Positions 24,638 to 50,153 of a stretch of DNA of 64,000 bases are shown here, one piece after another. The stretch spans positions 18,593,608 through 18,657,607 of the forward strand of contig NC_088299.1 in assembly GCF_032854445.1 (NCBI RefSeq), given 5' to 3'. A program made the position numbers and the translations under genes. Source of the DNA: Liolophura sinensis. Taxonomy: Eukaryota > Mollusca > Polyplacophora > Chitonida > Chitonidae. How positions within the stretch are numbered: the stretch's first letter is position 1; the number at the start of each line of letters is the position of its first letter. The notes under the pieces are model-generated. The model searched no databases, was not told the origin of the DNA, and saw nothing but the letters and a program-made list of their open reading frames with translations.

Positions 24638-26692
24638 ATGAATTTAACATTTCCAATCAGGCAGCCACCAAGTACACCTATATTGGTCAGTCTGACAGTT
24701 AACAAGGCAAACAATCTACCCCAAAACACCATGAAGGGAGACAGAAAGAGGAAACAGTCTAGATTTCAAGCTGGAAAGGCCCAGGATCGCTCAAATAACC
24801 TGTCAGCAGTTACAGACATGCTGAATCCTCTGCCTGGGTGTTCCTTGATGGACACAGATTTCCAGCCCAATCAGGAGGCTGTAAGAACACACCAGCCTGA
24901 CACAAAGAGAATACAGCGGCCAAGACGGTGCAAGGTAGATTCCACGGCTGGATCAGACAGAGATACCCATGAGCGGGAATGGGCTGCTGAAGGAATGCGA
25001 CTCATAGACATACAGAAAATGGTGTGTATATGGAACAAAGTTATGCTTGAGCACAGTGAGACCAAGGACCACTGTCCACTGCCCAGGTTAGAGATAGCTG
25101 CAGAGAAAAAGTGGGGTTTAGCCTGGGCGTTCAGTTTTAAGTGCTGTGACTGTGACTATGTATCTGGCTTCCACAAATTCTACAAAGAGGTAGAATGCAA
25201 CAGACCTGGCCAAAAAGCTGCAGCGGTGAACCGAGCTCTTCAAGTAGGCCTCCAGGACACACCAATGGGGAACACCCGAGCCAGACTCCTATTTGCAGCG
25301 ATGGACGTGCCGCCTGCCACTCGTAGGAACATGCATCGCACTGCAAACCATGTCGCATCTGCAATCGCAAAGCTGAACAGAGAGGATATGGCAAATAAGG
25401 TGGAAGAGGTAAAGGCATACAAAAGGCAAAGAGGAGAGGATGACAGCACAATAGATTTGGCCACAGACACTCGCTACAACAGCATTACCATAACCAGTCC
25501 CAAGAAACCGGGCCAGAATGCTTCACAAGCCATTTCCCTGGCAGTGGAGACATCAACAGACAAGCAATACATTGTCTCCGCAGCACTGAAGAATAAATTG
25601 TGTTGGACTGGGTCCTGGCTGAGAGGAAAAGGCTTCCAAGTAAAGTGCCCTGGAGGACACGAGGAGTGCACAGCGAACACAAACCCACATGCCCCCTGGT
25701 CCGAGTATAATATGGGGAACGAGATTGGCGAGGGATTGGCGAGGCAAGGTGTTTTAGCCAAGCACGTAACCACGGACGGCGACTCCAGGTCAGCCAAGGG
25801 AGTGGAGGACGGCATCCGACTGGTCGAGCCACTGTGGGAGGTCGAACGGTTAGCAGACCCCACGCACCTTGGTAGATCCCAGTTCAAGAAATGTAACCAG
25901 GCTAAGTTCAGCGATGCCATGTTTGAAGGACAGGGCCGAACGAGGGAAGCCAGGAAGAAAGCACAGAAGGTGTTGAGTCAGGATGTTAAGGCCAGGTGTA
26001 GCTTGATATTTTCTCAACTTATGTCTGAGCACATTGGTGACATAAGGAAAATAAAAGCTTACCTACCCAGGGTTGTGGATGCAACGGTCAGGTGTTATGG
26101 TGGGGACTGTTCCAAATGCCGCAGGAACAGTGTGGTTTGCTCCGGAGGGGAAACCAGCAGCTGGTGGGAGAGATCCCTGTTTTTATCCGCCAGTAAACTC
26201 TGCCCTTTCAACATGGATGACAACGACAGGAAACTATTGACCGAAGTACTGCACATGAGGTTGAGCGAGACAGCCGTCACCAGTCTCCGGATGAACACCA
26301 GTACTCAAAAGTGCGAAGCTGTCAACAGATCACTCAGCGTCTCCTTGCCCAAGAATGTAAACTACAGCAGAAATATGGAGGGAAGGGCGGCGTCCACAAT
26401 CCACAGACTTAACAATGGCCAGGACAAGTCCACGGCTGCCAAACTCCAAGCTGTCGGCGCCAGTATTTCACCTAGGAGCGAGAAAACAGTACAACAGATT
26501 GAAAGGGTGAACCAGTACCACAAGGTTTATAAGAAGCGACAGACAGTTAAGGGGAGATCACTCCGCAATACAGCCAGAAAACTCCGAGAGCACATTGAGT
26601 ACAGGCTTTCAAATCCAGAAGAGAAAACTGACTATGCCAAGGGACAACTGGACAACACCCCAACAGATCACACATACGCTAGATATTTGTAA
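24638..26692 (+). CDS. Mutator-like transposase-domain protein
   Basis: An intact single-exon frame of 684 codons, probably the DDE-type transposase of the surrounding element. The N-terminus is basic (KGDRKRKQSRF at 34-44, RPRRCK at 94-99) as in DNA-binding or nuclear-targeting segments. A Cys cluster (CCDCDY, about 169-174) follows. The core has the layout I recall for metazoan Mutator-like transposase domains: ISLAVETSTDKQYIV (299-313), a Cys/His cluster (CPGGHEEC, 337-344), TTDGDSRSAKG (378-388, likely catalytic Asp), a second Cys set (CYGGDCSKC, 486-494), WWERSLFLSASKLCPF (509-524), and QKCEAVNRSLSVSLPK (557-572, likely the Glu). The start at 24638 gives the longest protein. Met32 has a better Kozak context. 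A Kolobok-like or other related assignment is possible. Confidence 0.65.
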   Translation: MNLTFPIRQPPSTPILVSLTVNKANNLPQNTMKGDRKRKQSRFQAGKAQDRSNNLSAVTDMLNPLPGCSLMDTDFQPNQEAVRTHQPDTKRIQRPRRCKVDSTAGSDRDTHEREWAAEGMRLIDIQKMVCIWNKVMLEHSETKDHCPLPRLEIAAEKKWGLAWAFSFKCCDCDYVSGFHKFYKEVECNRPGQKAAAVNRALQVGLQDTPMGNTRARLLFAAMDVPPATRRNMHRTANHVASAIAKLNREDMANKVEEVKAYKRQRGEDDSTIDLATDTRYNSITITSPKKPGQNASQAISLAVETSTDKQYIVSAALKNKLCWTGSWLRGKGFQVKCPGGHEECTANTNPHAPWSEYNMGNEIGEGLARQGVLAKHVTTDGDSRSAKGVEDGIRLVEPLWEVERLADPTHLGRSQFKKCNQAKFSDAMFEGQGRTREARKKAQKVLSQDVKARCSLIFSQLMSEHIGDIRKIKAYLPRVVDATVRCYGGDCSKCRRNSVVCSGGETSSWWERSLFLSASKLCPFNMDDNDRKLLTEVLHMRLSETAVTSLRMNTSTQKCEAVNRSLSVSLPKNVNYSRNMEGRAASTIHRLNNGQDKSTAAKLQAVGASISPRSEKTVQQIERVNQYHKVYKKRQTVKGRSLRNTARKLREHIEYRLSNPEEKTDYAKGQLDNTPTDHTYARYL

Positions 26693-26801
26693 CCGCCAGT
26701 TTTGTATAAAATTTGTCACTGCTGTTGTCGCTTGTGAAAGAAATTAAAAAATGATGACAGAAATTGAGCAAAATCTGAAACACATCTGTTATTTATTATT
26801 T

Positions 26802-27196
26802 TTAATGAGGGGAAACCAACCTGCTCAGTCTTAAATGCAGCATGCACCTTGCATACTGCCCATGGCCGAGACAGCGCCCTACGTTGCAGCAGCGCTGCCT
26901 GTTATTGTTAACACAATGCGGTTCCAAGCTTGTGTGGTCCACATTTACACAGCGTGTGTTGTGGCACAATCAAGCTTGGGATCTAAATGTGACAGCCCCT
27001 GTCTGGCCATATAAACAAGTCTACTGATGTATTTCTTCTTCCATCCATGTGTGACGGGGTCTTTGTAGGAGGCAAGGCCATATCGACCATCTCTCGTCAA
27101 TGGTCCAGTCCACACTCGACAGGCTCCGTTTTCGTTATAAACACTGAAACTTTCAATTTTTGCAGCAATTTCTGCTCTGAACGTCTCCATTTTCAA
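26802..27196 (-). pseudogene. His-Me-finger endonuclease-like zinc-domain gene, frameshifted
   Basis: From an ATG at 27196 the first frame reads a Cys-x-Trp-Thr-Gly segment (CRVWTGP) and SRLVYMARQG, as in the N-terminal half of I-PpoI-like (zf-His_Me_endon) domains. Near 26970 the homology moves to another frame, which reads LCHNTRCVNVDHTSLEPH, then NNNRQRCC, down to a stop at 26802-26804. That is the characteristic Cys-His-Asn ... Cys-Val-Asn ... His zinc/active-site core. The break appears to be a small deletion that removed the usual Ser-His before LCHN. It converges on the transposase gene, 109 bp from its stop, inside the same direct repeats, so it is probably cargo of that element. It looks inactive in this copy. 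Confidence 0.7.
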
Positions 27197-27448
27197 GCGT
27201 AGGAATACTAGAACGTTGCATGTTGTTCATTTCAGGATGCCTATACACATGTTACCCTACACTGAACAGCATTTTACCGATTTTTCATCAAAATGGATAT
27301 TTTCAAAAAATAAATAGCCCCAAGAAGCTATAAAACGGCTCAATCAATGCAAAACACATCACAGACATACCCACCAAAAATTATCAGGCTGCTGCGAAAT
27401 CTAAGCGCATAGTGACATTTTTCACATTTTGGTGACTTCGTCAGTACA

Positions 27449-27901
27449 GGCCTCGGACCCCCATTAATTTTCCATAAGCGACAATGTTAACGTCTAGCAC
27501 TGTAGCTCAGTCCCAAACATTCCGTGGCCAATAAGCTTTGGTGCATACCTGGCCCAGCCTGTGAGAAAGAAGCCATAAAAATCTTGACATAGGTTGACCG
27601 TCAAAATCTGGACCTTTCCATGCCGGCAGCTGGGAGGCGTGCCTAGCAACGCCAAGGGGACGTCACTCGCAGCCTCATCACTACCTCACACCTTGTGTCC
27701 TCTCGCCCAGAGTTTCAAACTTTCATCAATAAAGCTCATACCTCCTCAAAGTTTAGACAGTTTCCAGCATTTTAATACCAAGCATGCACCTGTGCACCAA
27801 AAATGGACGCCTGGGAGCAAAAAAAGACTTTATACCCTAAAATTCACAGAACTACAATCGTCCCTACCGAAAAACGGAAGTTGTAATGGGGGTCTGTGTC
27901 C
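27449..27901 (+). repeat. Right 453-bp terminal direct repeat
   Basis: Same sequence and orientation as 23311-23763 with constant 4,138-bp spacing. It ends TAATGGGGGTCTGTGTCC and is followed by ACCTGACA. Its AATAAA (27728-27733) could serve the transposase transcript. Confidence 0.9.
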
Positions 27902-32250: not shown

Positions 32251-32256
32251 TTTATT
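32251..32256 (-). promoter_or_regulatory. Likely polyadenylation signal of the SAM-retropepsin gene
   Basis: AATAAA on the minus strand, about 200 nt downstream of the stop codon at 32455. It is the nearest canonical signal I see. Confidence 0.45.
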
Positions 32257-32454: not shown

Positions 32455-33312
32455 TCAAGATGGCTCCTCTGTGTGGATATTTGGTTGGGAATTGTCATCC
32501 TGAGGTATTGGTAGCTGATTCATGTCAGCGCGAGGTTTGTCAGTTTGAACGATAGTGTCCCCAGCTGATCCAAAGCTGGGCATGCGTTGCAGGAATTCTG
32601 ATAGACACACAGATGAGGGTGTAGATGAGATGGTCTCAGTTGGCGAACCGGAGGAATTTTTAACTTCTTCACTTTGATACTGGGCAAAAGTCTTCGAACC
32701 AGCAATTGATCTGGCCAATATTTTTTCCGATAGCACTGATCCTACTAATGTAACGGTAACATCTCCCGAGTGCGATGGTTTTGTTAACGTAGTAGAAATA
32801 TCTGCCGAATGCACTATGCTTGTTAACGTAGAAGAAATATCTGCCGAATGCACTGTGCTTGTTAACGTAGTAGGAATATCTGCCGAATGCACTGTGTTTG
32901 ATAATGCGGTTGGAATAACTGCCGATTGCACTGTGTTTGGTAATGCGGTCGGAATATCTGCCAATTGCGCTGTGCGTTTTAATGTGGTTTGAATATCTGC
33001 CGAATGCACTGTGCTTGCTGATGTTGTTGGAATATCTGGCGATTGCACTGTACTTGCTAATGCGGTTGGAATATCTGCCGATTGCACTATGCTTGCTAAT
33101 GAAGTTTGAATATCCTCCGAGTGAATTGAATCAGTCGTTAACACTGAGCTGCCAGTTGTTGATATTCCCTCTCCACGAGAAGAGTCAACGTTCATTACTA
33201 AAGGTGGTTCTATGTAGTTGCCAGGCAACCAAACATGTCGGTTTCCGTCAATAAAATGCCGGAAGTGACGTATCACCCTGCTGCCAAGGGAATCGTACGA
33301 CTCTGGCATAAC
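32455..33312 (-). CDS. Exon 5: protease C-terminus and repeat tail
   Basis: The acceptor is ctgttccag|G in phase 0. The exon completes the protease fold (VMPESYDSLGSRVIRHF) and then encodes about 50 Ser/Thr-rich residues, ten copies of a 13-residue repeat (type SADIPTALASTVQ) from a 39-bp tandem DNA repeat at about 32730-33120, and a final ~90-residue segment. The stop codon is at 32455-32457. The repeat stays in frame throughout. Confidence 0.8.
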   Translation of the reverse strand, partial: VMPESYDSLGSRVIRHFRHFIDGNRHVWLPGNYIEPPLVMNVDSSRGEGISTTGSSVLTTDSIHSEDIQTSLASIVQSADIPTALASTVQSPDIPTTSASTVHSADIQTTLKRTAQLADIPTALPNTVQSAVIPTALSNTVHSADIPTTLTSTVHSADISSTLTSIVHSADISTTLTKPSHSGDVTVTLVGSVLSEKILARSIAGSKTFAQYQSEEVKNSSGSPTETISSTPSSVCLSEFLQRMPSFGSAGDTIVQTDKPRADMNQLPIPQDDNSQPNIHTEEPS

Positions 33313-36300
33313 CTGGAACAGCCAAAAACAGTGAAATACCGTCAGTCCAATTTTATCAAGCACTGCTCTGTACATATCAAACAAATACGAAAGCTAATAT
33401 AAAAATAAGAAAATAAGAAAATATAAGAATAAGAAAGCTAATAAGAAAATGTCAGAACCATGTTCAGCAAGGACACAGAGTGTAACACCACTGGACGGCA
33501 TGAGGTATAAGTCGAGAGGGGAATAGTGACAGCCTGCTGTGAAGCATCATTAGTGTACATCAATAATTGTTTTTGTGTGTTTGATTGACTGGGGTTTAAT
33601 GTCGCTTTGGACATTACTTCGGTCATATCAAGACGGTGTCTCCCTGTAGCAGGCCGGAACAAATGCCGGCATGGTTTATCGTGTCCCCTTACATACCGAA
33701 GACACAAAATACGACACCCCACCCAGTCACATTTTACTCAAACCGGGCCGACCTGAAAGCCTCTTACACAAATGATCGTGGAGAACTTGACTGTAACTAA
33801 TATAAATGGAGATGTATGTTTTAAACATGTGTCACCCTGCTAATTACTAATACTATCCTGCTGCTAATAGTCCTGCAAAATGGCCGACTACATCATGGCC
33901 GTCGTTTCATTTGATAGATGATGACGTAACGTGTACATTTTATCTGCATTAAATATCCGCTCGCAAGGTTGATAGGAATGACACAGTCTCCTAATCAGGT
34001 ACAGGTTTCAACGAAGGAAAACAGATAAATAGCAAGAGCTAAAGTAATATTTTTACTTCTATTTCAATCTGGCTGCTTCCTATCAGTAGCTTGGCCTTGT
34101 ATAGGCGTTTTTCCCGGGAGGCGTGGACACCTTTACTTCGCACCGTCCCTAACAACTCCAGGTCGAGGCTCTCCAGCACCTCTTCTCTTAAAGTGACGAC
34201 GTCACTTCCGGAATCCACCATGAAATCTGACGAGTAAAAAGTAACATTTGAGCCCAAGAGCAATTTAGACAAAGCTATACAAGTGGTGGGTCACAGTAAT
34301 CCATAACTGTGATACTGTTTTAATTGATATTGTTACAAGATAGGTTTAGGCGATGTACTGGTGTACAGCCATGTATCATGCTACCTCCATATAATGACTG
34401 AGAAGCCTCATCAGTCACAAACATCAGCAAGCCGTTCGAAAATTTCCTGTCAAGTACAGCTAAAATGTATTTATTGGAATTTTACGCCGTACTCAAGAAT
34501 ATTTCACTTATACAACGGCCAGCAACGTTATGGTGGGAGGATAACAAGGCACAGCCCCGGGGTAACACCACCATCCACAGGTTGCTGGGAGACCTTCCCA
34601 TGTAGGTCTAGAGAGAAAACCATAATGAGTAAGAGGAACTCACAGCGACGGTATTGGGGGAGACCCTTAGGTCACTGTTCTACATTAGCACTGCAGCTCA
34701 AATACACATACGATTTATTTCTTTGCACTTAAAAATACACTCTGCTTATATACCGACAGGCAGCGTTATGGGTGCAGGAAGCCGCAAATAACCCAGAGGA
34801 AAACTACCGGTCCCCAGTTAAGGAATACATATCCTGACTTACAGCCGCGGCCAAAACAAATCTTTCCCTGACGAGTCACGGACAAGTGGTCTCACTGGAC
34901 GGTGCCATCAGAGAGGAAGTCATTTTTATCCTCATAGGACAGATTCACATGAGAAATGTCCCATGCTAAATATGCAAAATTTCTGCAAGAATCAGGTTTT
35001 TAAAATGAATATGTAAACAATTTGTTTTACCAAAATCGGACAATATTTGGAGCAGTTATTTCACAGAAACCAACGACCAATCAGAATCAACGAAACGAAG
35101 ACGTGACAGAACGAATAATGGACAAACGTACTGACCGACAAACAGACCCACGTTAATATCCCTGGCAAAAGCGTGGAGTAACATAGTTATTCACTTGTCT
35201 TGTGTAACTTACCAATCCTCTTGGCATTTTGCGGATGTTTCGTGGAGGTAATGACGCCTTCAACACACAGAAAATCATATTTGGCATCGACGAGAGCACT
35301 GGGCTTTCCCCAACGTCCCACGACAAGAGGCTCTTCCGGTGAGCTATCATCCAATCGCCGTTTCTTTCTCAGCTGTGTAACTGTAACATTACAAGCAGAA
35401 AACCAGGAAAGTTAGTTTTTGAAAGAAAACTTGACTTAAGATGAGCATTGATCGTATTTACGTCGCTTAAACAATGTTTTCAGATCAACATTAATGAGTT
35501 TTACTTCACTTAACCAAATTTTTAGGATGGACACTGGTCAGATAGACGTCCCTTAACCAAAGTTTTCAGATCAGCATAGATCAGATTGACGTCACTTCAT
35601 GGTTCCACGGTTAGAATTATTCTGATAACTACATTTAACCAATGTTTAACATAAAGTGCAATAACAAAGGAAAAGCACATCTATATAATTAATGACATGT
35701 ACTAGAGTATGATACGTCAGTGCGGGATTTTACATTCTTCTCAACAACCTGTCTGCGGCGACAAGGAAGTTCTAAGTGTTCTGATCACGTGATCTCTGGG
35801 ACCAGGTGCCTTGGCGTCTGGTTAGAAAAGTCCGTGTCACTTGACGCGTTATTTGTGTAAGTGTTCAGATTAAGTAGGTTATGGCACCCCAGTGGGTCTG
35901 GCGAGATTATTGTGTAATAGTTAAGCCCGTCCTGGAAGTAGTGCCAGTCAAGATAACATACTAAACATGCAGAGAATAAAAGCTATTCTTAGTTCAAAGA
36001 AACCGCGAAGTGCCACAGTCCCCTCTGTATTCAATATGTGTAAGGCTTATTTCTTATATAAGAACGAGCGCTCTTATTTTAGGCGTTCTCTGTCCCTGTT
36101 CACGTACATGTATTTATTCACATCAGATTATATCATTCACATTTTAGACCCAAGTATACATTCACAGTTTAGACCCAAGCATACATTCACAGTTTAGACC
36201 CAAGCATACATTCACAGTTTAGACCCAAGTATATATTCACAGTTTAGACCCAATTATACATTCACATGTATTCACACGTACTACACTACATTCCCTGGAA

Positions 36301-39300
36301 CTTACGCTCGTACAGCCATGCATCGTAAATGAATAATTAGCGAAGAATTAGCGAACCAATTTGCCCTGGATGTACGAGTGTTTGGCAACCATTGCAATTT
36401 ACCCTGCTTGCACGAGCGTATGACAACCCGCGCTATTTACCCTGGTTGTACGCGCGTATGACAATCCGCTACAATTTCCCTGGTTGTACAGGCGTATGAC
36501 AACCCGCTACAATTGCCCTGGTTGCACGAACGTATGACAATCCGCGCTATTTACCCTGCTTGTACGAACGTATGACAACCCGCGCTATTTACCCTGATTG
36601 TACGAACGTATGACAATCCGCGCTATTTACCCTGGTTGTACGCTTATATGACAACCCGCTACAATTGCCCTGGTTGTACAGGCGTATGACAACCCGTTAC
36701 AACTGCCCTGGTTGTACGAGCGTATGACAACCCACTACATTTACCCTGGCTGTACGAACGTATGACAGCCCGCTATTTTTACCCTGGTTGTACGAGCGTA
36801 TGGCAGCCCGCTGTTTTTACCCTCGTTGCACGAACGTATGACAACTCGCGAAATTTCCCCTGGATGTACGAACGCATGACAACTCGCGAAATTTTCCCTG
36901 GATGCACGAGCGTATGGCAGCTCGTGCTATTTACCCTGGTTGTACGAGCGTATGGCAGCCCGTGCTATTTACCCTGGATGTACGAGCGCATGACAACCCG
37001 CACTATTTACCCTGGTTGTAGGAGCGTATGGCAGCCGGTGCTATTTGTTGTACGAGCGTGTGGCAGCCTGTACAGGTAACCTTGGGTGCATTCGAGCGAG
37101 CTGCAACCCGCGCTATTTACCCTGGTTGTACGAGCAAATGACATCCCGCGCTATTTACCCTGGTTGTACGAGCTTATGACAACCCTGGCTATTTACCCTG
37201 GTTCTACGACCGTATGACAACCCGAGACATTTACCCTCGTTGTACGAGCATATCGCAGCCTGTACAATTTATCTTGAGTGTATTCGAAGGAGGGCCAACC
37301 GGCACAAAAGTGTTGACTGTGTCGTGTAAGTGAAATATTCTTGAGCATGGCGTAAAACACCAATCAAATAAATAAATAAATACAACACCACAGTGTTGAT
37401 AACCCTGTTATAAAGCCATAATGTTGTCAATTGTACTTATATTGCGCACGTTTTACCCTCACCCAAACCGGTTGCACTTTTTTTTCATTCTTCCGTGTGT
37501 AATCGTAATTTATCGTCGAGTACCCTTTTTGATGTCCCTTTTTATTTGACTAGCATGAACGACGTGTGCGGGAGAGCGTGAATCCGAATTCAATCGCGCA
37601 ACCTGAGGTAGCATATCTAGTGTCGAACCTGCCCGAATTCAACTTACAGAAAACAAGAGGCACATGTGTGTAACCTGTCCTCAAGAATGTCATGTCGACA
37701 TGCAATATAGCTTGACGTTGATCTTACACTTAAGAGATATAAGTAACTTTATACTTTGGTTATTTAAATAAAGCACTCTCAAATTGTCCCTTATATCACG
37801 ATTTCTCAAATGGTGGTGTATATGTACATCGTTCTAACCCACAGGTGAGCTATTGTATAGACCGTGTAAAGATAGCAGGTTTAGACGCTGTCTATACAGT
37901 TAAAACTTCTGTAACTATATACATAAGCGAGTAAATAGCTTGGTTAACAAAGAAACACCCCCAAATAAAGAAAGAAACCGAAAATACATGAGTATTGCTG
38001 TCCACTAGTCGTAACCTAAAATGAATAGCTTACACGACAAACAGATTTAGAAGACTTAGAAATCTCCATGTGAGAGCACAGTAATACCAGTACCCAGATA
38101 ATAACCCAACAGCGGTCTATATACCGCTTAAATAAAATAAAAATGAAAATAAAGCGCAAGCCAAACCGGCGACTGGTTTCGATTTCGAACATTCGACCAG
38201 ACGCAGGCTATCACTATCTTTCATCATTTGCCTATAAATATCTGCCATCCTCTGTTAGCCTATAAATATCTGCTATCTTCTGTTAGCCTTTAAACATCTG
38301 CCACGTTTTATCAGCCTATAGCTATCTGCAATCCTCTGTTAAATGGTTTATTGGTTTATTAATATTCAGAGCCAACAGGCCAGGAGCCCACTTACAGGTC
38401 TGATAACAGGGTTACATACAGAGTAACAGATGCGTATAATACAAAATACAATTTTTGTACAAAGATAGTGTAAACACAGGTAAACCTATGGTGTAATTCT
38501 TGGTACAAAAATGTTATACGTGTAAACATAGGTTAATATATAAAACTATTGTAAACGGTTATAATCAGAAGTCAAGATCATGAAATATGTTAATCACAGG
38601 AATACCGTTAAAAAAGAATCGAGTGAACTGACATGACCTTTTAAAACATTGTTGTGAAGACAAATTTCTCTGGAATGATTAGATCTCAGGTCATAGAAAT
38701 TCATGGCTCGAGGGGAAAAAAGAAGGTTTTCGAGCGTTAATTCTGGTTGACACAGGCCGGAAAGTTGTCATTTGTCGTAAGGCGGGGGCAGGAAAATTAA
38801 AGTTGACCTGTTGTACTAGGTAAGGCGAGTCAACGATAGAGTGAACACATTTGTGTAAGAACTTTAAATCGGCAGCTCTGCGGCGATCAGATTGTGTCGG
38901 CAGCTGAAAATGTTTACACATAGCACTGTATTTTTCAGAGGAATAAGCGTGATTAGTTTTAAAACAAAGATATTTGATGAGCTTTTTTTGAATGAACTCT
39001 AACTTGTCTGAAAGATATATTTGGGTGGGAAACCATATAATTGACCCATACTCCAAGTTGGAGCCAACTAAGAATCTGTACAGGGAAAAAGTAAAATGCA
39101 CGATCGCTTGAGAAAACTAAGCATTTTATAACCTTTTCTAACGGTATTGGTGACATATACTCTAAAATTCAGATTACTGGTTAATGTTATCCCACGATCT
39201 TTCAGTCTCTTTCAAGTGCATGTCCGTCAATGCTATAATTATAATATATATATAACATATAATATTTATAATATAATTGGATATAATTTTGTTTTATTCG

Positions 39301-42300
39301 TGAATGATGTGACACAACAATTGTCCACGTTTAACTTAAGCTGCGAAACTGAACACCAGTTGGTTGCTGAACACCACGTGCGAGGTCTTCCTGTAATAGC
39401 TCACATTCTTGTGCGGAACGCACTTGTTTTTAAAGTTTACTGTCATCTGCATACAGTGACAATTTAGAGTGCCGAACACAAGAAGACATGTCGTTTACAT
39501 ATAAAACAAACAGTAACGGAAGAATCAAAGACCCTTGCGGTACCCCGGACAATACCGGCTTCCATGAAGATCCTGCGCCCTGTAAGATAACTCGTTGTGA
39601 GCGGCCTTTGAGATACGAGCGCAGCCATTTGAGCAGTGGGCGTTGGAAGCCATAATGCTTCAGTTTATGTATCAACAACTCATGACAGACGCTGTCGAAG
39701 GCTTTACATAGGTCTAGGTACACAGCATCGGTCTGCAGTTTTGCGTCAAAAGCCTTAGTGATACCATCAACATAACAGGTTGGGTTGGTAACCGTGTCAC
39801 GGTTACGAAAAAATCCATGTTGATTTAAGGCTATTTTGTTTCGAACATGTTGAAATAGTGTTTCATATACAGCCTTTTCATGAATTGTACTGAAGATTGG
39901 TATCAAAGATATAGGGCGGTAATTAGTAACGTCAGTCCGGTCGCCTTTTTGAAAATTGGAATCACGTTAGCTCTCTTAAAACCTGTTGGAAAGCACCCAT
40001 TTGAAGAGATGTGTTGAAAATTAAACTTAGGGGAACGGCCAGTTCCTCTGCACACTCTTTCAAAAGTAGGCCTGAAATATTGTCATATCCACAGGCCTTG
40101 TGGATTTTTACAGAATTCAGTAAACAGGATATATAATGGGCATCAACAGTAGCATTGCTCATTATGTCATCACACTGAACAGAGAGCGGAGGCATTTCCG
40201 TTGTTTGAGGTCTGGTAAAAACACTATTGAAAAAATCGTTGAACAACTCGATTGAGTTTATATCATTAGCCTTAATATTTTCATACTTAACAAAGCCCAA
40301 AACTGAGCCTTTTGATTCCTTGGTTTTAACGAAACCCCAGACTTGCTTTGGGTTGTTTTCCCTTTCTGACTCAACATTTGAAATATATTCCTTATATTTC
40401 GTTTTAACTTTTTGAATGTATCGCGACCAGTGATGACGAGTGATCAGTGCAATGTTAGTTGTTACACTAAAGGGCATAGTTGCCTTCACAGTATTGTGTC
40501 AATGTTGCTTGTTACAGTACTGAACACAGTTGCCTTCACAGTATCATGTCAATGTTGCTTGTTACACTACCGGCCATAGTTGCCTTCACAGTATCGTGTC
40601 AATGTTGCTTTTACACTACCGGGCATAGCTGCCTTCACAGTATCGCGTCAATGTTGCTTTTACACTACCGGGCATAGCTGCCTTCACAGTATCGCGTCAA
40701 TGTTGCTTGTTACAACACTGGGCATAGTTGCCTTCACAGAATCGTGTCAATGTTGCTTGTTACACTACCGGCCATAGTTGCCTTCAAAGTATCGTGTCAA
40801 TGTTGCTTGTTACAGTACTGGACATAGTTGCCTTCACAGTATTGTGTCAATGTTGCTTCTTACGGTATTGAACATAGTTACCTTCACAGTATCGTGTCAT
40901 TGTTGCTTGTTACAGTACTGGACATAGTTGCCTTCACAATATTGTGTCAATGTTGCTTGTTACGGTACTGAACATAGTTGCCTTCACAGTATCGTGTCAG
41001 TGTTGCTTGTTACAGTACTGGACATAGTTGCCTTCACAGTATCGTGTCAGTGTTGCTTGTTACAGTACTGAACATAGTTGCCTTCACAGTGTCGTGTCAA
41101 TGTTGCTTGCTACAATACCTTGACGGTATTGTGTCATTTTTGGTTCTTACAGTACTGGACGATATAGTTAATATACAATTCCACAGTGATGACTCACCTG
41201 CTCTCTCCAGTCGCTTCCGGTGTCCGGGAAGGACTATCTCTAGCTCATCATACAATTCCTGGTCCGGTAACTGAAGGTTGGCCAGCTCCGTGAAATCCGT
41301 CAGATCTGACCGGATAAAGTTCACAAGGTAGTAGTCTAGATGGTGTTGACGTAACCATGTGTACAGTTGGTAGCCTTCACTGGGAGTGTAATGATAGCCT
41401 GAAAATACAGTTGACATAAGTTCAACAATGACGAGATGTATCATTCCACATTTTTTTCCTTAACAATGCAGAATACTGAGTGGACTGTCTTTATTATGTT
41501 ATATTTTGTTCTTGTGCAGTTCGAGACCGTTCTGTGGTGGAGTGCCGGTATTCAGATCGACACCGTTCTGAGGTCGAGTGCCTGTATTCAGATCGACACT
41601 GTTCTGTGGTCGAGCGCTAGTGTTCAGATCAACACTGATTCTGTGGTCGAATGCCTGTATTCAGATCGACACTAACTCTGTGGTCGAGTGCCTGTATTCA
41701 GATCAACACTGTTCTGTGGTCGAGTGCCTGTATTCAGATCGACACCGTTCTGTAGTCGAATGCCTGTCTTCAGACCAACCTTGTTCTGTGGTCAAGTGCC
41801 TGTATTCAGATCAACACTATTCTGTGATCGAGTACCTGTATTCAGATCGACATTGTTCTGTGGTCGAGTGCCTGTATTCAGATCGACACTGTTCTGTGGT
41901 CGAGCGCCAGTGTTCAGATCGACACTGATTCTGTGGTCGAGTGCTAGTATTCAGATCGACACTGATTCTGTGGTCTAGTGCCTCTATTGAGATCGACACT
42001 GTTCTGTGGTCGAGCGCCAGTGTTCAGATCGACACTGATTCTGTGGTCGAGTGCCAGTATTCAGATCGACACTGATTATGTGGTCGAGTGCCTGTATTCA
42101 GATCGACGCTATTCTGTGGTCGAGCGCCAGTGTACAGATCGACACTGATTCTGTGTTCGGGTGCCTGTATTCAGATCAACACTGTTCTGTGGTCGAGTGC
42201 CTCTATTCAGATCGACATTGTTTTGTGGTCGAGCGCCAGTGTTCAGATCGACACTGATTCTGTGGACGAGTGCCTGTATTTAGATCGACACTGATTCTGT

Positions 42301-45300
42301 GGTCGAGTGCCTCTATTCAGATCGACATTGTTCTGTGGTCGAGTGCCTGTATTCAGATCGACACTGATTCTGTGGTCGAGCGCCAGTGTTCAGATCGACA
42401 CTGATTCTGTGGTCGAGTGCCTGTATTCAGATCAACACTGTTCTGTGGTCGAGTGCAAGTGTTCAGATCGACACTGATTCTGTGCTCGAGTACCTGTATT
42501 GAGATCGACACCGTTCTGTGGTTGAGTGCCTGTATAGAGATCGACACTGTTCTGTGGTCAAATGCCAGTATTCAGATCGACACTGATTCTGTGGTCGAGT
42601 GCCTGTATTGAGATCGACACTGTTCTGTGGTCGAGTACCTGTATTCAGATCGACACAGATTCTGTGGTCGAATACCTGTATTCAGATTGACACTGTTCTG
42701 TGGTCAAGTGCTTGTTTTCAGATCGACACTGTTCTGTGGTCGAGTGCCTGTATTCAGTCACAATCAGTCATAAACTCATTTTTTATGGTTTATTTTTTCG
42801 TGTGAGCCGTAGACAGTCTATACTGTGAAACAAATAATTGCAGTCCTTTGACTGAATTAATTTTATGAACGATTTATGTTATTGCAGTTAGATATAACAT
42901 ACTGGGTTTTCGAGGGAACGAGCTGAATATACTGGTCTATTACTGTGATTCACAATTTTCTGCACTTTGATCAAATCCAAAACCTTTCACGAACTAGAAA
43001 TGGTGTTAACACGGGACTTAGCTCGCGAATCTAGATGTCAAAAACTCGTCAGGCAAAATAGGGGTACCACGCCAGCACTTGCGGGAATTTTTTTTTTGTA
43101 CACATTTACACATATAGCTCCCAGCCAGGTATTCCATTAAAGGGGGCGTTGACGGGACATATAGGCCCTTCAACTTACATAACCCTTATGTAAGGATGTA
43201 TGACGCTTTCTTACACTTGGTTTCCTACCACTACAACACCATACCACGCGATCATGTATACACCCATGAAATGGGTATCTTGCATGCACATGCAGTCTTA
43301 TTTATTTCATCATTTAATTATTTGTCCATTTCATTGGTGCGTAACTCAATAATACAACACTATACCAGATGACAAGTATTATGTTTATTTGCATGTTGTT
43401 GTTTCTTTATACATTTGATTTCTGTTTAAAATCATGAGCAGGAAGACTCCTATCACCCCCAAGGTTCACTCATAACATCGCCAAAATTCATTTATATCAT
43501 CGCCAATGTTCACTCATATCATCGCCAAGGTTCACTCATATCATCCCTAAGATTCACTCATATCATCGCCAAAGTTCACTGATATTACCGTCAAGATTCA
43601 CTCATATCATGGCCAAGATTCACTCATATCATCGCCAAAGGTTCACTCATATCACCCCCAAGGTTCGCTCATATCATCGCCAAGATTCAATCATATCACC
43701 CCCAAGGTTCCCTCATATCATCCCCAAGGTTCACACATATCATCCCCAAGGTTCACTCATATCACCCCCAAGATTCACTCATTTCACCCCCAAGGTTCGC
43801 TCATATCACCCCCAAGGTTGACTCATGTCACCCCCAAGGTTCCCTCACATCATCCCCAAGGTTCACACAAATCATCCCCAAGTTTCACTCATATCATCGC
43901 CAAGATTTACTCATATCATCGCGAAGATTCACTTATAATTTCGCCAAGGTTGACTCAAATCATCGCCAAAGTTCACTCATATCACTCCCTATGTTCACTC
44001 ATATAAAACCCAAGATTCGCTCATATCATCGTCAAGGTTCACTCATGTCACCCCCAAGATTCGCTCATATCATCGACAAGGTTCACTCATATAACCCTCA
44101 AGGTTCACTCATATAATCCCCAAGATTCGCTCATATCATCGACAAAGTTCACTCATAACACCCCCAAGGTTCACTCATATCATCCCCAAGATTCGCTCAT
44201 ATCATCGACAAGGTTCACTTATATCACCCCCCAGATTCACTCATATCATCCCCAAGGTTCACTCATATCATCCCTAAGGTTCACTCATATCATCCCCAAG
44301 ATTTACTCAAATCACCCCCAACGTTCACTCATATCATTGTCAAGGTTCACTCATATAACCCCCAAGGTTCACTCATATCATCCCCAAGGTTCATTCATAT
44401 CATCGCCAAGATTCACTCCAAGATATCACCCCCAAGATTCACTCATATCATTGTCAAGGTTCACTCACATCATCGCCAAGGTTCACTCATATCACCCCCA
44501 AGATTCACTCATATCATCCCCAAGGTTCACTCATATCATCGCCATGATTCACTCCAAGATATCACCTCCAAGATTCACTCATATTATTCCCAAGGTTCGC
44601 TCATATCATCGCCAAGATTCACTCATATCATTGTCAAGGTTCACTCATATCATTCACAAGGTTCACTCATATCATTCACAAGATTCACTCATATCACCCC
44701 CAAGGTTCACTCATATCACACCCAAGGTTCACTCATATCATCCTTAAGGTTCGCTCATATCATCCCCAACGTTCACTCATATCATCCCCAAGGTTCACTC
44801 ATATCACCCCCAAAGTTCGCTCATATCATCGCGAAAATTCACTTATATCCCTTCCAAGGTGCGCTCATATCACCCCCAAGGTTCACACATATCACCCAAA
44901 GGTTCACTCACATCATCGCCAAGGTTCACTCATATCACCCCCAAGATTCACTCATATCATCCCCAAGGTTCACTCATATCATCGCCATGATTCACTCCAA
45001 GATATCACCTCCAAGATTCACTCATATTATCCCCAAGGTTCGCTCATATCATCGCCAAGATTCACTCATATCATTCACAAGGTTCACTCAAATCATCCCC
45101 AAGATTCACTCATATCACCCCCGAGGTTCACTCAAATCATCCCCAAGATTCACTCATATCACCCCCAAGGTTCACTCATATCACACCCAAGGTTCACTCA
45201 TATCATCCTTAAGGTTCGCTCATATCATCCCCAACGTTCACTCATATCATCCCCAAGGTTCACTCATATCACCCCCAAAGTTCGCTCATATCATCGCGAA

Positions 45301-48300
45301 AATTCACTTATATCCCTTCCAAGGTGCGCTCATATCACCCCCAAGGTTCACACATATCACCCAAAGGTTCACTCATATAACCCCCAAGGTTCATTCATAT
45401 CATCGCCAAGGTTCGCTGATATAACCCTCAAGGTTCACCCATATCATCCCCAAGGTTCACTCATATCATCGCCAAGATTCACTCCAAGATATCACCCCCA
45501 AGATTCACTCATATCATTGTCAAGGTTCACTCATATCATCGCCAAGGTTCACTCATATCACCCCCAAGGTTCACTCATATCATCGCCAAGATTCACTCCA
45601 AGATATCACCCCCAAGATTCACTCATGTCATTGTCAAGGTTCACTCATATCATCGCCAAGGTTCACTCATATCACCCCCAAGGTTCACTCATATCATCCC
45701 CAAGGTTCATATCCCACTCAAATCATCTCTCAAGGTTCACCCTCACTCATATCATCCCCAAGATTCACTCATATCACCCCCAAAGTTCACTCATATCACC
45801 CCCATGATTCACTCATATCATTGTCAAGGTTCACTCATATCACCCCCAAGGTTCGCTCATATCACCCCCAAGGTTCACTCATATCACCCCCAAGGTTTAC
45901 TCAGATCACCCCCTAGGTTCATCCATATCATCGCCAAGATTCACTCATATCAACCCCAAGGTTCACTCATGTCATCCCCAAGATTCACTCATATCACCCC
46001 CAAGTTTCGCTCATATCACCCCCAATGTTCACTCACATCCTCGCCAAGATTCACTTATACCATCGCCAATATTCACCCATATCACCGCCAAAATCCACTT
46101 ATATCATTTAAGGAACACCAATCAAATGAATAAATCTAAGTATTTTATATACAGAGTTAACCACGTATGTAACTCTGTTTTTGGAACTCACACATAACCA
46201 TCTGGTGCGCATGTACCATTAACGATTACACGTTCATTATATATACGTGTCGCATATAACAGAGGGTTCTATAAACATACGTGTATATAAACGTTGGTAT
46301 TACTTTCTGTTTTAGTCCACTTTTCCCACACTTTATACCTACACAGGATATCCCCTGGGTGACCAGCCTTGCCTCACTGCACAAGGAATTAGACATAAGA
46401 CTAGCATTTTCTACATGTTCACATGTATCTTAGATTTCTAAACATATGTCGTCTGAAAACCATCTCCGTGTATAGGCTTACTTGTACAAAGTTGACGGGG
46501 TCAGACATGCGTTGTTTGTATGCGATGCATTTAGTCTACCAGGCAGGTAGATCTATACATTTCCCTGTCGTTGTCCCGGACTATACACACATATGATATG
46601 TAGGACAAAAACTCTTGCAAGCTGAAGATAAACGATGTATTTATTTTAACCCAGTTTTACAAATGCTATACTTATATGTTCTTTTGAATAAACCTTTCAA
46701 CGAAATGTGAAAATTTCCACGCCGAGATTTTACCTTTTGAATACAAAAATGAGAGTACATGTATAATTCTTCGTGTGTAAGAAACTTGAGCGAATTATTT
46801 TATAGAAAGTTTGCAGTACCTCCATAATGCATCTTTTCACCATGAACAAAGTAGTGATATCGTTGTACTCAAGTGTAGGCTAGACATGTACACATGACTG
46901 TACCTATGTCTCCATGTCTCTGTGTTACTTTATCCAGGTATATATATTTCCTGGTCCTAGACTTTTACTTCTTGCTTGGACCTCTGTGACCTAGTGGCTA
47001 TCGTGCTAGCGAAGCCCACTGACCCAGAAGCCCCTCACCAATGTGGTCGCTGTGAGTTCAAGTCTAGCTCATGCTGGCTTACTCTTCGGCCTTCCAGCAA
47101 CCTACGGATAGTCGTAGGTTTCCTCCTAGGCTCTCCTATACGTTTATGCTGGCCATCGTTGAGTAAGTAAAATATGCTTAATACGCGTAAAAAACAAACA
47201 AATAAATAAATATATAAATATATTTCATCTATTGATTGTTGTACTAGAAGTCAACTAAACTGTAACAGTATCTGCAGTGTAACAGTCCAATTAGAAACAC
47301 TGCTGTACCAACAGTCCTGGGAGCCAAATCTTATATATCGTACAAATAGCCAAGGAAGCAATATTATACCAGCACTGTGACCAATGTGCTCGCTGTGAGT
47401 TCAAGTCCAGCTCATGTGGGCATGTTTATTTATTTATGTATTTATTCACTAAAACGCAGGGCTAAACAACTGTTCGCTCGTTCGATTCCGGTCAGGTTTA
47501 CGGCTTGAGGAGTCAGGAGCACTTTAAGTAATCACCACCTGGCTGTCTAAAGCATCTATACCTAAAGTGTACCCGATCTGTCTGACCAATAAGGTCCCAG
47601 GCTCGAATCCCAGCTATAAAACTGAATCGAAGGAAGATTTAAATTAGGAGGTGTGTCGACCAGCTGGCAGTTACTCCCTGTACTGTGGTTTCTTAATTTT
47701 CCACCCATGCATAAAGGAGACCATGTGATATAAGTGAACAATTCAACTAGATGCGGAGTTCAGCACTAATGAAATAAGTAAATACATATGTATTCTATAT
47801 CAGATATATGTATTTATTATCTACTGATCAGTTTACAGCTTACGACTGAGAAATTCGGACGCGGGCCACGTACAGACGGTTTAAGGAATATATGAGAGAA
47901 CCATCTCAACACCCAAGTTGACTTCTAATCGCGCGCCTATGGATTTGAACATTGCAAAGACTACACACATGTATAGTATGGCCCGCATTCATTGATATGT
48001 GCGCAAGCTGATAAACCTGTCTATTATCATCAGTGTAAAGAAACTTGCTCTATGCAAACCGTTTACACATTCTTGAGAAAAGTTTTTTTGTTTAATACCA
48101 TACTCCATAAGAACTTGGGATTCCCATGTTATAGGTAGTGTTTTCAGTTATTTAACTGAAAAATTTTCGTTCACAGGAAAATATATATCTACATGAACAG
48201 GGATAAATAGTTTTCAAAGGCTTTATGCGCATGTGTACGACATTTATTAAAATTAATTCATTCCCCTGACGGGTATACGACATACACACCTTCACACTTA

Positions 48301-50153
48301 TCTATCTAGTATGTGTCCCTTGCAGAATGAGCACGTATACTTCCATAACAATTGCATATACAGTCTCAAGTCTGTTTGAATAACGCGTCTTACGTAGCCG
48401 GGTTACCTGCAATATGGTGTCAAAAGACCGGCGGCCCACCCCGCCCGTCACTGGAGACTCCGCATGTGACACAACAGCCGATTTTATGCGCAGCCAAACA
48501 TGTCGTTTGATATATGTAAAGCGGCTTATGTGTACGGGACAGGGGTTACATTTGAGGTCAAATTTCTTGGTAGTTCTCCATATACAAGAAAAGACAACGT
48601 ACATGTAGGCTAAAGAAAACATTCATACAATGGCATATACTCTTTTCTTATACGACTCTCCTGTACACCTCTGGTGTGTGCTACTTGTACACGTTAGGCC
48701 CTATATATATGCTAATATACATGAATAGGTATGTTTCGAGGTGCTATCACTCATTCAAGAGACGTGTCGTAAACCTCTGATAATAATTAATTCGACATCT
48801 GCAAAATAATTAAACATTTATAGATTTACTTGTAATATATTCACATATAGGCCTACGTCTCCATTTCATATATGTTTTTATATACACATGTATGTGTACC
48901 GAAAGCGAAAGCCTGTGTACTTTATTATATCAACAAGCACGTTAACAAAGTATTAGATGTTGTATACCAGTGTAAATACATAACCATTTTGGTATTTTTT
49001 TGTTGTTGTGTACATTTAGCAGCTGGAAGGGCATGTCTTACCTCAAGAGGTTGCCAGAGGCCTGGTGGTTTTAGCCCCAGCATTCCGATTGCTTTATGAA
49101 TGCACTTATAAAAAGCTATGATATATGGGGCTAACAAAAATATTCACCATCTTCGCGTTAAACCACAGCTACAACTGCAATGGCTGGTTTTGAATAGGAA
49201 TAGTTTTAAGTAAAGCATAAAACAGTGTCAAACAGAGGCATACATCGTTAATCAACGCGATTGTTCAGTGCAGAGACTTTCGGATTAAAATAAAGCAGGC
49301 AAAGTTTAGGTCGAACGCTTTACATGTGTTCTAGGGTAAAGGCCTATATTTGACCCCATCTATGTGTCTGTTAAATATAATGTGTGTTTACAAATTACAG
49401 TTGGGAAATATTCGCTGAACTTTTGACACCAGATTAAACTCTTTTATCAATCGAACTTCGATCCATATTAGCAGATCAGTAGTACAACTGCAAACAACTG
49501 TGAGTTACAGCTAACCCACCTGCAAAACTGACGGGGAAAGTTTCCATATATACAGGCCTAGTCTGTTCCAGGCAGTGTAAATAGTTAGTGAAGGCTGAAT
49601 AAATGTAGGCAGGGTTACATGGGGACAATCTTATATCAATCATAATAGCCCCACCCCCCTCCGCAAGCCACACTCACTACCCCAGGGTTTGTTACTGCGC
49701 CTCCATGCATATGCTCATTCTAAGTGGATAAAATTTCAGTGTTTTAAACTGATCTCCAGTTAACGTACACTTCCCATCACTAGGCGAGTGAATAAATCAA
49801 GACTTTAGTGTGCACAGGGCTACGTCACATAAATAATTACACGCATATGCATGTAGCCTGTATTAACTAGAAATAATGAGAACTTGCTGAAGGGGAGTGG
49901 GGGGGGGGGGGTCAGAGTAATATGATAAACACCCCCAGCTGTTGGTAGATTCTGCCTTACCTGCTGTCAACAGCAACTGCCGATGGTTCGGGTCCGAAAT
50001 TTCCATGGCATCCAGGTCATCGTCTTGTAAATTATTCACGTCCGACTCACAGTCAAAACCTTTCGTTACAAAAATTTCGTAATATTGCTCCAGTCCAAGC
50101 TCCATCAAAAATTCCTTCACACCTTCAGTCATTGCTAAGTAGTTTTCGTTCAT
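32455..50153 (-). CDS. SAM-SAM-retropepsin protein, five-exon gene (whole span)
   Basis: Joined exons (minus): 50153-49961, 41398-41198, 35380-35213, 34274-34057 and 33312-32455. Their lengths (193, 201, 168, 218, 858) total 1,638 nt, or 545 codons plus stop. The phases agree at every junction (1, 1, 1, 0) and every intron is GT-AG. The protein has SAM1 (about 8-64), SAM2 (about 74-131), a basic linker with RKKRR (136-140), and a retropepsin-like domain with FMVDSGSDVVTL (D208-S209-G210 catalytic loop) and a later SYDSLGSRVIRHF (265-277, the usual LG motif before the C-terminal helix). Ten 13-residue repeats (about 325-454) and a Ser/Pro-rich end follow. Retropepsins act as dimers, and SAM domains could supply the oligomerisation. 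That is inference. I know no named orthologue. It appears intact and so is probably a host gene with a domesticated protease. The GAA|GTAAAA donor of exon 4 is the weakest site. Confidence 0.82.
33575..33765 (-). repeat. SINE fragment, second family, minus strand (intron 4)
   Basis: The reverse complement has taaaatgtgactgggtgggg, tgtcttcggtatgtaa and a 3' end with aagcgacattaaacccc. It matches the central block and tail type of the SINE at 17542-17888. The tRNA-like head is not visible. Confidence 0.65.
34057..34274 (-). CDS. Exon 4: retropepsin-like active-site exon
   Basis: The acceptor is cttgtatag|C (phase 1) and the donor is gaa|gtaaaa (phase 0). It encodes residues 188-260, including LLLGSNVTF, FMVDSGSDVVTL (the D-S-G catalytic triad plus the hydrophobic strand) and a Lys/Arg-rich hairpin that ends in QIEIE. 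With exon 5 it forms the roughly 100-residue length expected of a single-lobe retropepsin. No gag, RT or integrase sequence lies beside it. Confidence 0.82.
34466..34684 (-). repeat. SINE copy, main family, minus strand (intron 3)
   Basis: Reads ttttacgccgtactcaagaa, cacttatacaacgg, ggtgggaggataac, ccaccatccacaggttgc, cttcccatgtaggtc and gaactcacagcgac, the reverse complement of most of the family. A further degenerate piece of similar pattern follows at about 34725-34830. Confidence 0.8.
35213..35380 (-). CDS. Exon 3: basic linker
   Basis: The acceptor is aatgttacag|T and the donor is attg|gtaagt, both phase 1. It encodes residues 132-188, beginning VTQLRKKRRLDD (possible nuclear signal) and containing GRWGKPSALVDAKYDF. 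No stop occurs in this frame, and 168 nt keeps the phase. An alternative acceptor six bases further on (ttacacag|C) would drop two residues without changing frame. Confidence 0.75.
35381..36135. other. Intron 2, part without recognised features
   Basis: Unique AT-rich intron sequence. The 76-codon plus-strand frame at 35967-36197 has no domain. Confidence 0.5.
36136..36265. repeat. Short tandem repeat, about 25-bp unit, 5 copies
   Basis: Copies of ttcacagtttagacccaagc plus ataca, with small changes, directly before the larger 38-bp array. Confidence 0.9.
36360..37290. repeat. Minisatellite, about 38-bp unit, about 24 copies (intron 2)
   Basis: The unit contains tgtacgagcgtatgacaacc and cgcgctatttaccctgg, with abundant substitutions and some shortened units. 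Its right edge runs into a SINE 3' tail. Confidence 0.94.
37300..37385 (+). repeat. SINE 3' tail next to the 38-bp array
   Basis: gtgaaatattcttgagcatg, gcgtaaaacaccaatc and an aaataaataaat tail match the 3' end of the main SINE family. No box A or B precedes it. Array sequence takes their place. Confidence 0.85.
37386..38230. other. Intron 2, part without recognised features
   Basis: No coding or repeat signal recognised. Confidence 0.5.
38231..38341. repeat. Short tandem repeat, about 28-bp unit, 4 copies
   Basis: Units of the form gcctataaatatctgccatc plus ctctgtta, diverging along the array, directly beside the LINE 3' end. Confidence 0.85.
38342..40440 (-). pseudogene. Non-LTR retrotransposon (LINE) fragment with RT domain
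   Basis: Minus-strand frames cover the linker (about 40440-39962), the reverse transcriptase core (39906-39430) and the C-terminal segment (39101-38691). RT hallmarks are visible: NQHGF, DLCKAFDSV (first catalytic Asp), LLKWLRSYL, GVPQGS and the YADDSKL box. The element is broken by at least two frameshifts near 39900-39980, a gap between the RT core and the C-terminal part, and loss of the endonuclease half. The 3' end on the minus strand shows an aataaaccaataaacc-like tail near 38345-38365. I place it in the broad CR1/jockey group without certainty. It lies in intron 2 in the same direction as the host gene. Confidence 0.85.
40478..41165. repeat. Minisatellite, about 50-bp unit, about 13 copies (intron 2)
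   Basis: The unit runs from gttgccttcacagtatcgtg through tcaatgttgcttgttac to a variable actaccgggcata. The array abuts the LINE fragment on the left and reaches to about 30 bp from the exon 2 splice donor on the right. Confidence 0.93.
41198..41398 (-). CDS. Exon 2: second SAM domain
   Basis: The acceptor is tgtattttcag|G and the donor is gcag|gtgagt. It is phase 1 on both sides, so the exon is symmetric and exactly encodes one module. Residues 65-131 include YQLYTWLRQHHLDYYL, FIRSDLTDFTEL and LPGHRKRLERA, the helix pattern and final G-H-R-x-R helix typical of SAM domains. The phase matches exon 1, so splicing directly across the 8.5-kb intron keeps the frame. Confidence 0.85.
41526..42756. 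repeat. Minisatellite, 36-bp unit, about 34 copies (intron 1)
   Basis: The unit is gttctgtggtcgagtgcctg plus tattcagatcgacact. Point variants recur (gattctg for gttctg, gcgccagtg for gtgcctgta). Its length, a multiple of three, keeps several frames open on both strands, so the short frames here are artefacts. Confidence 0.96.
42757..43455. other. Intron 1, unique stretch between arrays
   Basis: Nothing recognised. Confidence 0.5.
43456..46111. repeat. Minisatellite, 22-bp unit, about 120 copies (intron 1)
   Basis: The unit is tcactcatatcaycnccaag plus gt or at. Substitutions are frequent, and insertions such as 'tcactccaagatatcac' recur at several places, which marks block duplications (44.35-44.8 kb, 44.9-45.3 kb and 45.4-45.7 kb look alike). 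The right end passes straight into a SINE tail. Confidence 0.96.
46112..46135 (+). repeat. SINE tail remnant at the end of the 22-bp array
   Basis: 'acaccaatcaaatgaataaa' equals the terminal motif of the main SINE family. Only this tail is present. Confidence 0.65.
46136..46975. other. Intron 1, unique stretch
   Basis: No coding or repeat signal recognised. Confidence 0.5.
46976..47222 (+). repeat. tRNA-derived SINE, near full length
   Basis: It starts ggacctctgtgacctagtgg (box A region). The box B region is gagttcaagtct, and the middle caacctacggatagtcg and the tail aaacaaacaaataaataaat follow the family order. It has a deletion where other copies carry gtacgtgggaaggt. Confidence 0.85.
47385..47785 (+). 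repeat. Degenerate SINE pieces
   Basis: gtgagttcaagtccagctca at about 47395 is the box B region of the main family, cut off after about 30 bp. At about 47595 ggctcgaatcccagc is a second box B-like site, followed by cacccatgcataaagg, atgtgatataagtgaa and an A-rich end at about 47785. This looks like a related, older SINE. Confidence 0.55.
47786..49960. other. Intron 1, no further exon identified
   Basis: Mostly unique AT-rich sequence. A G-run lies near 49900. A plus-strand patch at 49018-49111 looks weakly exon-like but was not accepted. Confidence 0.45.
49961..50153 (-). CDS. Exon 1: start codon and first SAM domain
   Basis: It starts at the ATG at 50153 (MNENYLAM) and ends LLLTA plus one base before a strong donor, cag|gtaagg. 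The SAM pattern is clear: VKEFLMELGLEQYYEIF, then FDCESDVNNLQDDDLDAMEI and HRQLLLTA. A second in-frame Met8 exists. Met1 gives the longer protein and begins just before the domain. Confidence 0.83.

What the first reader, a model, noticed from the sequence alone, without database searches (positions are those of the whole stretch)
32455..50153. Undescribed-looking host gene: two SAM domains fused to a retropepsin-like protease
Five exons with consistent phases and GT-AG borders join to an uninterrupted 545-codon frame. Tandem SAM domains followed by a D-S-G retropepsin domain is a combination I do not recognise as a named protein. No RT, integrase or gag lies beside the protease, so it looks like a domesticated retroelement protease or an ancient DDI1-like branch, possibly dimerised through SAM polymers.
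Basis: partly seen in the sequence, partly recalled or inferred. Interest (0 to 1): 0.85.

Follow-up and report, generated by a model that had tools for sequence, protein, structure and literature searches.

The report
Twin-SAM gene with retroviral-like protease
A single animal gene appears to join two protein-clustering domains to a small protease domain of the kind that retroviruses use, a pairing we could not find described, although nothing yet shows that it is transcribed or that it cuts proteins.

Summary
The observation largely holds. Five minus-strand exons join in phase to one open frame of 529 codons, not 545. It encodes two SAM domains (over Pfam's SAM_1 cut-off) and a D-S-G domain that hits Asp_protease_2 at E 1e-4, just below that family's cut-off. 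Donors 1-3 rank in the best 0.6% of GT sites of that strand; donor 4 is ordinary. The exon 2-3 and 3-4 joins raise the SAM and protease scores; adding exon 5 slightly lowers the latter and gets no profile support. No second copy was found in the 609 Mb genome. Paper searches found no SAM-plus-retropepsin protein. Fold prediction was uninformative. Origin is unresolved: this genome's DDI1 has its introns elsewhere, and retroelement and prokaryotic clan AA profiles match about equally weakly. Best reading, inferred: a host retropepsin-like enzyme whose SAM pair (acidic mid-loop, basic end-helix) brings together the two halves of a dimeric protease, as SAM domains cluster the catalytic domains of SARM1 and tankyrase.

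The parts
49961..50153 (-). exon 1: ATG and SAM domain 1 (residues 1-64); an upstream coding exon is not excluded
   Evidence: SAM_2 9.3e-11, SAM_1 6.4e-9 (protein 4); donor CAG|GTAAGG in the top 0.05% of GT sites
41198..41398 (-). exon 2: SAM domain 2 (residues about 65-131)
   Evidence: SAM_1 29.1 bits alone (protein 1); donor CAG|GTGAGT in the top 0.02%
35213..35380 (-). exon 3: end of SAM2 helix 5 (VTQLRKKRR), linker, start of the protease domain
   Evidence: joining it raises SAM_1 from 29.1 to 33.2 bits (intron read-through 27.7) and Asp_protease_2 from 21.4 to 23.4 bits (intron read-through 21.2)
34057..34226 (-). exon 4: DFMVDSGSDVVTL... protease core with the D-S-G motif (D192)
   Evidence: Asp_protease_2 E 4.2e-4 alone, 1e-4 with exon 3; donor GAA|GTAAAA is weak, best 22% of GT sites
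32455..33312 (-). exon 5: putative C-terminal protease strand with LG (L253), then a Ser/Thr-rich 13-residue repeat tail and stop
   Evidence: open frame; MAFFT sets L, G and ID on conserved positions of four cyanobacterial clan AA proteases, with a one-residue gap between L and G; no HMM support and the Asp_protease_2 score falls slightly when exon 5 is added (21.4 to 20.0)
32781..33114 (-). 39-base minisatellite inside exon 5, in frame
   Evidence: 8.6 copies; dN/dS near 1
32251..32256 (-). possible polyadenylation signal AATAAA, about 200 bases after the stop
   Evidence: motif only

Best explanation
A host gene, found once in its genome, encodes a protein of about 529 residues: tandem SAM domains, a basic linker, one retropepsin-like domain (one half of a dimeric aspartic protease) and a low-complexity Ser/Thr-rich tail. 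Shown: the exons, phases, splice borders, two SAM domains, the D-S-G core, and no second copy found in this genome. Inferred: the acidic mid-loop face of SAM1 (net -9 over 23 residues) binds the basic end-helix of SAM2 of a neighbour (net +8 over 21 residues); this head-to-tail assembly brings two protease halves together, and the dimer, with one D192 from each chain, cleaves a partner or itself where the SAM scaffold is assembled. This would be catalysis by induced proximity, as SAM domains do for the TIR domain of SARM1 and the PARP domain of tankyrase.
For: Frame and borders. SAM_1 1.4e-15 and Asp_protease_2 1e-4. Three of four donors in the top 0.6% of GT sites and four of four acceptors in the top 8% of AG sites of that strand (donor table recalled and approximate, acceptor score ad hoc). 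The exon 2-3 and 3-4 joins each raise a domain score while intron read-through does not. Two multi-sequence clan AA profiles score the domain above all 2000 shuffles. MAFFT aligns D-S-G, L, G and ID with four cyanobacterial 'clan AA aspartic protease' proteins, with gaps after D-S-G and between L and G. Charge pattern of the SAM faces. Solved relatives of the SAM pair include Caskin-1, Caskin-2 and ANKS1A/B, which have tandem SAM domains. Precedents: SAM multimerisation is essential for SARM1's function (PMC10252437, passages); loss of tankyrase SAM polymerisation lowers PARylation by about 40-50% (PMC4980433, abstract and one section).
Against: No transcript evidence. Asp_protease_2 is below its cut-off; NCBIfam gave no hit and the PDB sequence search no retropepsin. 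Exon 5's half has no profile support, adding it lowers the Pfam score by 0.6-1.4 bits, and donor 4 is weak. Against single retroelement or DDI1 sequences the domain does not stand clear of shuffles (3 to 36 of 2000). AlphaFold without an alignment gave pLDDT 39.8 and 43.0. The flap region lacks a glycine-rich motif (by eye). No relative in another species could be sought, so selection on the protein is untested. SAM2's mid-loop is also acidic (net -7), so the charge argument does not fix which faces meet.
Confidence: 0.45

Rival explanations
1. The protein is real but the retropepsin-like domain is a catalytically dead binding module; the gene works as a SAM scaffold.
For: Weak, sub-threshold profile match and no profile support for the C-terminal half; no glycine-rich flap seen by eye.
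Against: The catalytic triplet is intact (DSGS, residues 192-195) and lies in the stretch that matches every profile tried here.
Confidence: 0.27
2. Exons 1-2 (SAM) and exons 3-5 (protease) belong to two adjacent transcripts, or exon 5 is not joined; the fusion is an artefact of the parse.
For: Introns of 8.6 and 5.8 kb with minisatellites and an RT fragment; donor 4 weak; exon 5 without HMM support.
Against: Phases match at all four joins; SAM2 helix 5 continues into exon 3 with a 4.1-bit gain while intron read-through loses 1.4 bits; donors 2 and 3 are strong.
Confidence: 0.18
3. A captured or decaying LTR-retroelement protease fused by chance to SAM exons (debris, not a working gene).
For: The genome holds at least 36 Asp_protease_2 matches at E up to 0.01; the 19 stretches printed (of 20 loci) look retroelement-like, by eye only; a profile of five of them scores the domain at 13.7 bits.
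Against: The domain is split by two introns inside the fold and has no close relative elsewhere in the genome; no gag or integrase was seen by eye in the window's longer frames, and the RT nearby looks non-LTR.
Confidence: 0.1

Closest known systems
SARM1 (tandem SAM plus TIR NADase)
   Same: Tandem SAM domains beside a catalytic domain; SAM multimerisation is essential for its function in axon degeneration (PMC10252437, passages)
   Different: NAD hydrolase, with a TIR domain and ARM repeats (the last two recalled), not an aspartic protease
Tankyrase (SAM plus PARP)
   Same: SAM polymerisation supports catalysis and clustering (PMC4980433, abstract and one section)
   Different: Single SAM, ankyrin-repeat clusters (recalled), PARP
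Caskin-1/2 and ANKS1A/B tandem SAM
   Same: Among the 17 solved matches of the SAM pair at E up to 0.01; tandem arrangement
   Different: Scaffolds with ankyrin repeats and SH3 or PTB domains (recalled); no protease domain
DDI1/DDI2
   Same: Host retropepsin-like domain with D-S-G
   Different: Ubiquitin-like and UBA domains instead of SAM (PMC2642776, passages); other intron positions in this genome; no PF09668 hit here
SASPase/ASPRV1 and NIX-1/NRIP
   Same: Named eukaryotic single-domain clan AA host peptidases (PMC2642776, passages and part 1 of section 7)
   Different: No SAM domains (recalled); their sequences were not compared here
Prokaryotic clan AA DTGF proteases (COG5550 / TIGR03698; names partly recalled)
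   Same: D[TS]G, L, G and ID align; 16.5 bits with a 27-sequence profile
   Different: 20% identity to the first of the four; NCBIfam model not hit; annotated as separate small bacterial proteins

Membership tests
SAM domain proteins | Pfam SAM_1 above the curated cut-off, both copies | tested here: met
   SAM1 36.5, SAM2 29.1 (33.2 with exon 3), cut-off 23 bits. By SAM_2 (cut-off 20.5): SAM1 42.2, SAM2 18.7-20.1, just short
retropepsin-like (clan AA) | D-[ST]-G catalytic motif | tested here: met
   DSGS at residues 192-195; alignment
retropepsin-like (clan AA) | profile match above the curated cut-off | tested here: not met
   Asp_protease_2 23.4 against 24.3 bits; gag-asp_proteas 20.9 against 28.2 (protein 7); hence 'retropepsin-like', not filed as a certain member
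retropepsin-like (clan AA) | C-terminal hydrophobic-hydrophobic-G motif and following strand | tested here: inconclusive
   LG and ID present in exon 5, aligned with a one-residue gap; no HMM score for that half; chance pattern rate 28 of 1793
retropepsin-like (clan AA) | retropepsin fold, homodimer | tested here: inconclusive
   single-sequence models with pLDDT 39.8 and 43.0; fold search not obtained; dimer not testable here
DDI1/DDI2 | PF09668 protease with ubiquitin-like/UBA domains | tested here: not met
   no such Pfam hit; the genome's DDI1 is on C9 with other introns
LTR retroelement polyprotein | protease in frame with or next to gag, RT and integrase | tested here: not met
   Pfam finds only SAM and protease in the frame above cut-off or near it; the RT in intron 2 is separate and looks non-LTR by eye
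known multi-SAM families (ANKS1, Caskin, SASH1, liprin, SARM1) | ankyrin, SH3, PTB or TIR domains with the SAM pair (domain list recalled) | tested here: not met
   none in the 529 residues; upstream exons were not excluded; family list from PMC10252437

The most novel reading that the evidence does not exclude
A new class of host protease: a retropepsin-like half-enzyme that is switched on by tandem-SAM assembly, so that proteolysis occurs only where a SAM scaffold or polymer forms, with D-S-G-S catalysis across two neighbouring chains.
Probability: 0.25. Interest if true: 0.8.

Novelty: new variant of a known kind. Interest (0 to 1): 0.5.

Why it matters
Eukaryotes have few named host retropepsin-like proteases (DDI, NIX-1/NRIP and SASPase in the 2009 clan AA review, PMC2642776, passages), and how their dimerisation is controlled matters for all of them (my judgement). 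A natural fusion to a known oligomerisation module would make that question directly testable and would extend the SARM1/tankyrase principle to proteolysis.

Tried and rejected
Orthologue search: no eukaryote collection is on hand. Viral and prokaryote scans with the protease part found none, nor did tblastn on plasmids at E up to 10. Prokaryotic origin: my impression of a COG5550-like protease was tested and not upheld as exclusive. The 27-sequence DTGF profile (27 non-redundant of 75 usable, from 85 loci; 80 of 111 relatives kept, plus 5 from plasmids) gives 16.5 bits against 13.7 for five retroelement copies of this genome; but with five DTGF sequences only 6 of 60 draws reach 13.7 (median 10.9). 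Single DTGF sequences give a median of 5.5 and a maximum of 12.4, single retroelement sequences 2.4-5.7 and DDI1 4.9; hhalign probabilities are all low (DTGF 8.2, retroelement 38.6, DDI1 1.5). Exon 5 was tested against 119 candidate acceptors with C-half profiles; it did not score, and the best others (2.9 bits or less) are noise, as the best shuffles reach 8.1 and 9.6. Intron position shared with DDI1: rejected; DDI1 is split inside the Gly codon of DSG, this gene in codon 188, four codons before the Asp of DSG. Tail repeats as proof of coding: rejected, dN/dS near 1. Structure models: too poor to interpret. Rfam: no match in the window.

Full report
What is there. On the minus strand, five exons (50153-49961, 41398-41198, 35380-35213, 34226-34057, 33312-32455) join with phases 1, 1, 1 and 0 to an open frame of 529 codons and a stop. 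Scored with a recalled, approximate donor table and an ad hoc acceptor score, the first three donors fall in the top 0.05%, 0.02% and 0.54% of all GT sites of the strand; the fourth (GAA|GTAAAA) is ordinary (best 22%); the four acceptors lie in the top 1.6-7.7% of AG sites. An AATAAA lies about 200 bases after the stop. An upstream coding exon is not excluded.

Domains. Pfam finds SAM_1 at 1.4e-15 with two stretches and Asp_protease_2 at 7.8e-4 on the whole protein, and Asp_protease_2 at 1e-4 on the exon 3-4 piece, just below that family's cut-off. The joins were tested separately: adding exon 3 to exon 2 completes SAM2's last helix (29.1 to 33.2 bits, profile end reached), whereas reading into the intron lowers the score to 27.7. 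Adding exon 3 to exon 4 raises the protease score from 21.4 to 23.4; reading exon 4 out into both introns gives 21.2. Adding exon 5 to exon 4 lowers it from 21.4 to 20.0, and the piece with exons 3, 4 and 5 gives 22.8. One search also found no support for exon 5 in profiles of the C-terminal half of the fold, among 119 candidate acceptors. What speaks for exon 5 is its good acceptor, the continuous IEIE|VMPES, and an LG...ID pattern that MAFFT sets on conserved positions of four cyanobacterial clan AA proteases, with a one-residue gap between L and G; such a pattern follows 28 of 1793 open stretches after AG sites by chance.

Is the protease match more than chance? Two multi-sequence clan AA profiles built here score the domain above all 2000 shuffles of it (16.5 against a best shuffle of 7.1; 13.7 against 9.6). 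Against single sequences it does not stand clear: 7 of 2000 shuffles reach the score for the genome's DDI1, and 3 to 36 of 2000 those for five retroelement copies. The PDB sequence search gave no retropepsin, NCBIfam nothing, and AlphaFold without relatives was uninformative (pLDDT 39.8 and 43.0).

Surroundings. Intron 2 holds a broken element with a reverse transcriptase (RVT_1 2.5e-22) on the same strand; by eye it is non-LTR, a kind that from recall carries no retropepsin. Introns 1 and 2 hold several minisatellites. Exon 5's tail contains one with a 39-base unit, in frame, with dN/dS near 1. A forkhead gene (Pfam 1.3e-41) lies at C5:18586557-18587840, about 38 kb beyond the gene's 3' end. 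SAM1, SAM2 and the protease part each find themselves at this place in the 609 Mb genome; the only other hit of these three searches is a distant SAM (39% identity, E 4.6e-5) on C12 (only best candidates are scored by that tool). At least 30 SAM_1 matches exist in the genome.

Origin. This genome's DDI1 (C9) is interrupted inside the Gly codon of DSG and again before QIKIG; our gene is interrupted in codon 188, four codons before the Asp of DSG, and before VMPES. So there is no shared intron to support a DDI1 branch. Prokaryotic DTGF proteases and this genome's retroelement proteases fit about equally weakly once the number of sequences is matched. The origin is therefore open.

How it may work. 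Retropepsins act as dimers (DDI and LTR-retroelement enzymes; PMC2642776, passages), with one D-T/S-G from each chain (recalled). Here D-S-G-S is intact. The SAM pair carries a strongly acidic mid-loop in SAM1 (net -9 in 23 residues) and a strongly basic end-helix in SAM2 (net +8 in 21) (segment limits set by eye); head-to-tail SAM assembly uses a mid-loop and an end-helix face (PMC10252437, passage). SAM2's mid-loop is acidic too (net -7). I infer that assembly brings protease halves together. Known parallels: SARM1, where SAM multimerisation is essential, and tankyrase, where blocking SAM polymerisation lowers PARylation by about 40-50% (PMC4980433, section read). None of this is tested for the present protein.

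Known or new. Six searches combining SAM and protease terms returned no paper. A seventh returned five papers, in none of which 'SAM domain' occurs. One search with family names held 7 papers and listed 5, none with the SAM_1 label; by their titles they concern transposable elements, endogenous retroviruses or genome sequences. These are listings only. The library is open-access papers only, so unannotated database proteins with this architecture may well exist. I file it as a new domain combination of known domains, with the enzyme part as 'retropepsin-like' because a curated cut-off was tested and narrowly missed.

Noticed in passing
window 23311-27901: A 689-codon Mutator-like transposase frame (24623-26689 +, PF20700 1.5e-77) sits between two identical 453-base direct repeats (23311-23763 and 27449-27901), each with an 11-base inverted repeat near its ends; an LTR-like layout around a DNA transposase.
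   Followed up: partly
window 38694-40498 (-): Broken element with a reverse transcriptase (RVT_1 2.5e-22 at 39433-39966) in intron 2; looks non-LTR by eye.
   Followed up: partly
window 43446-46107, 59446-64000 and others: About twenty distinct minisatellite arrays with unit lengths from 16 to 56 bases in one 64 kb window.
   Followed up: no
L135:2950-4233 (C5:18586557-18587840 +): Single-frame forkhead gene, about 6 kb left of the window; a possible synteny anchor for orthologue searches.
   Followed up: partly
window 26948-27226 (-): 93-codon frame that by eye resembles an HNH-like module beside the Mutator transposase; no Pfam hit at E up to 0.01.
   Followed up: partly
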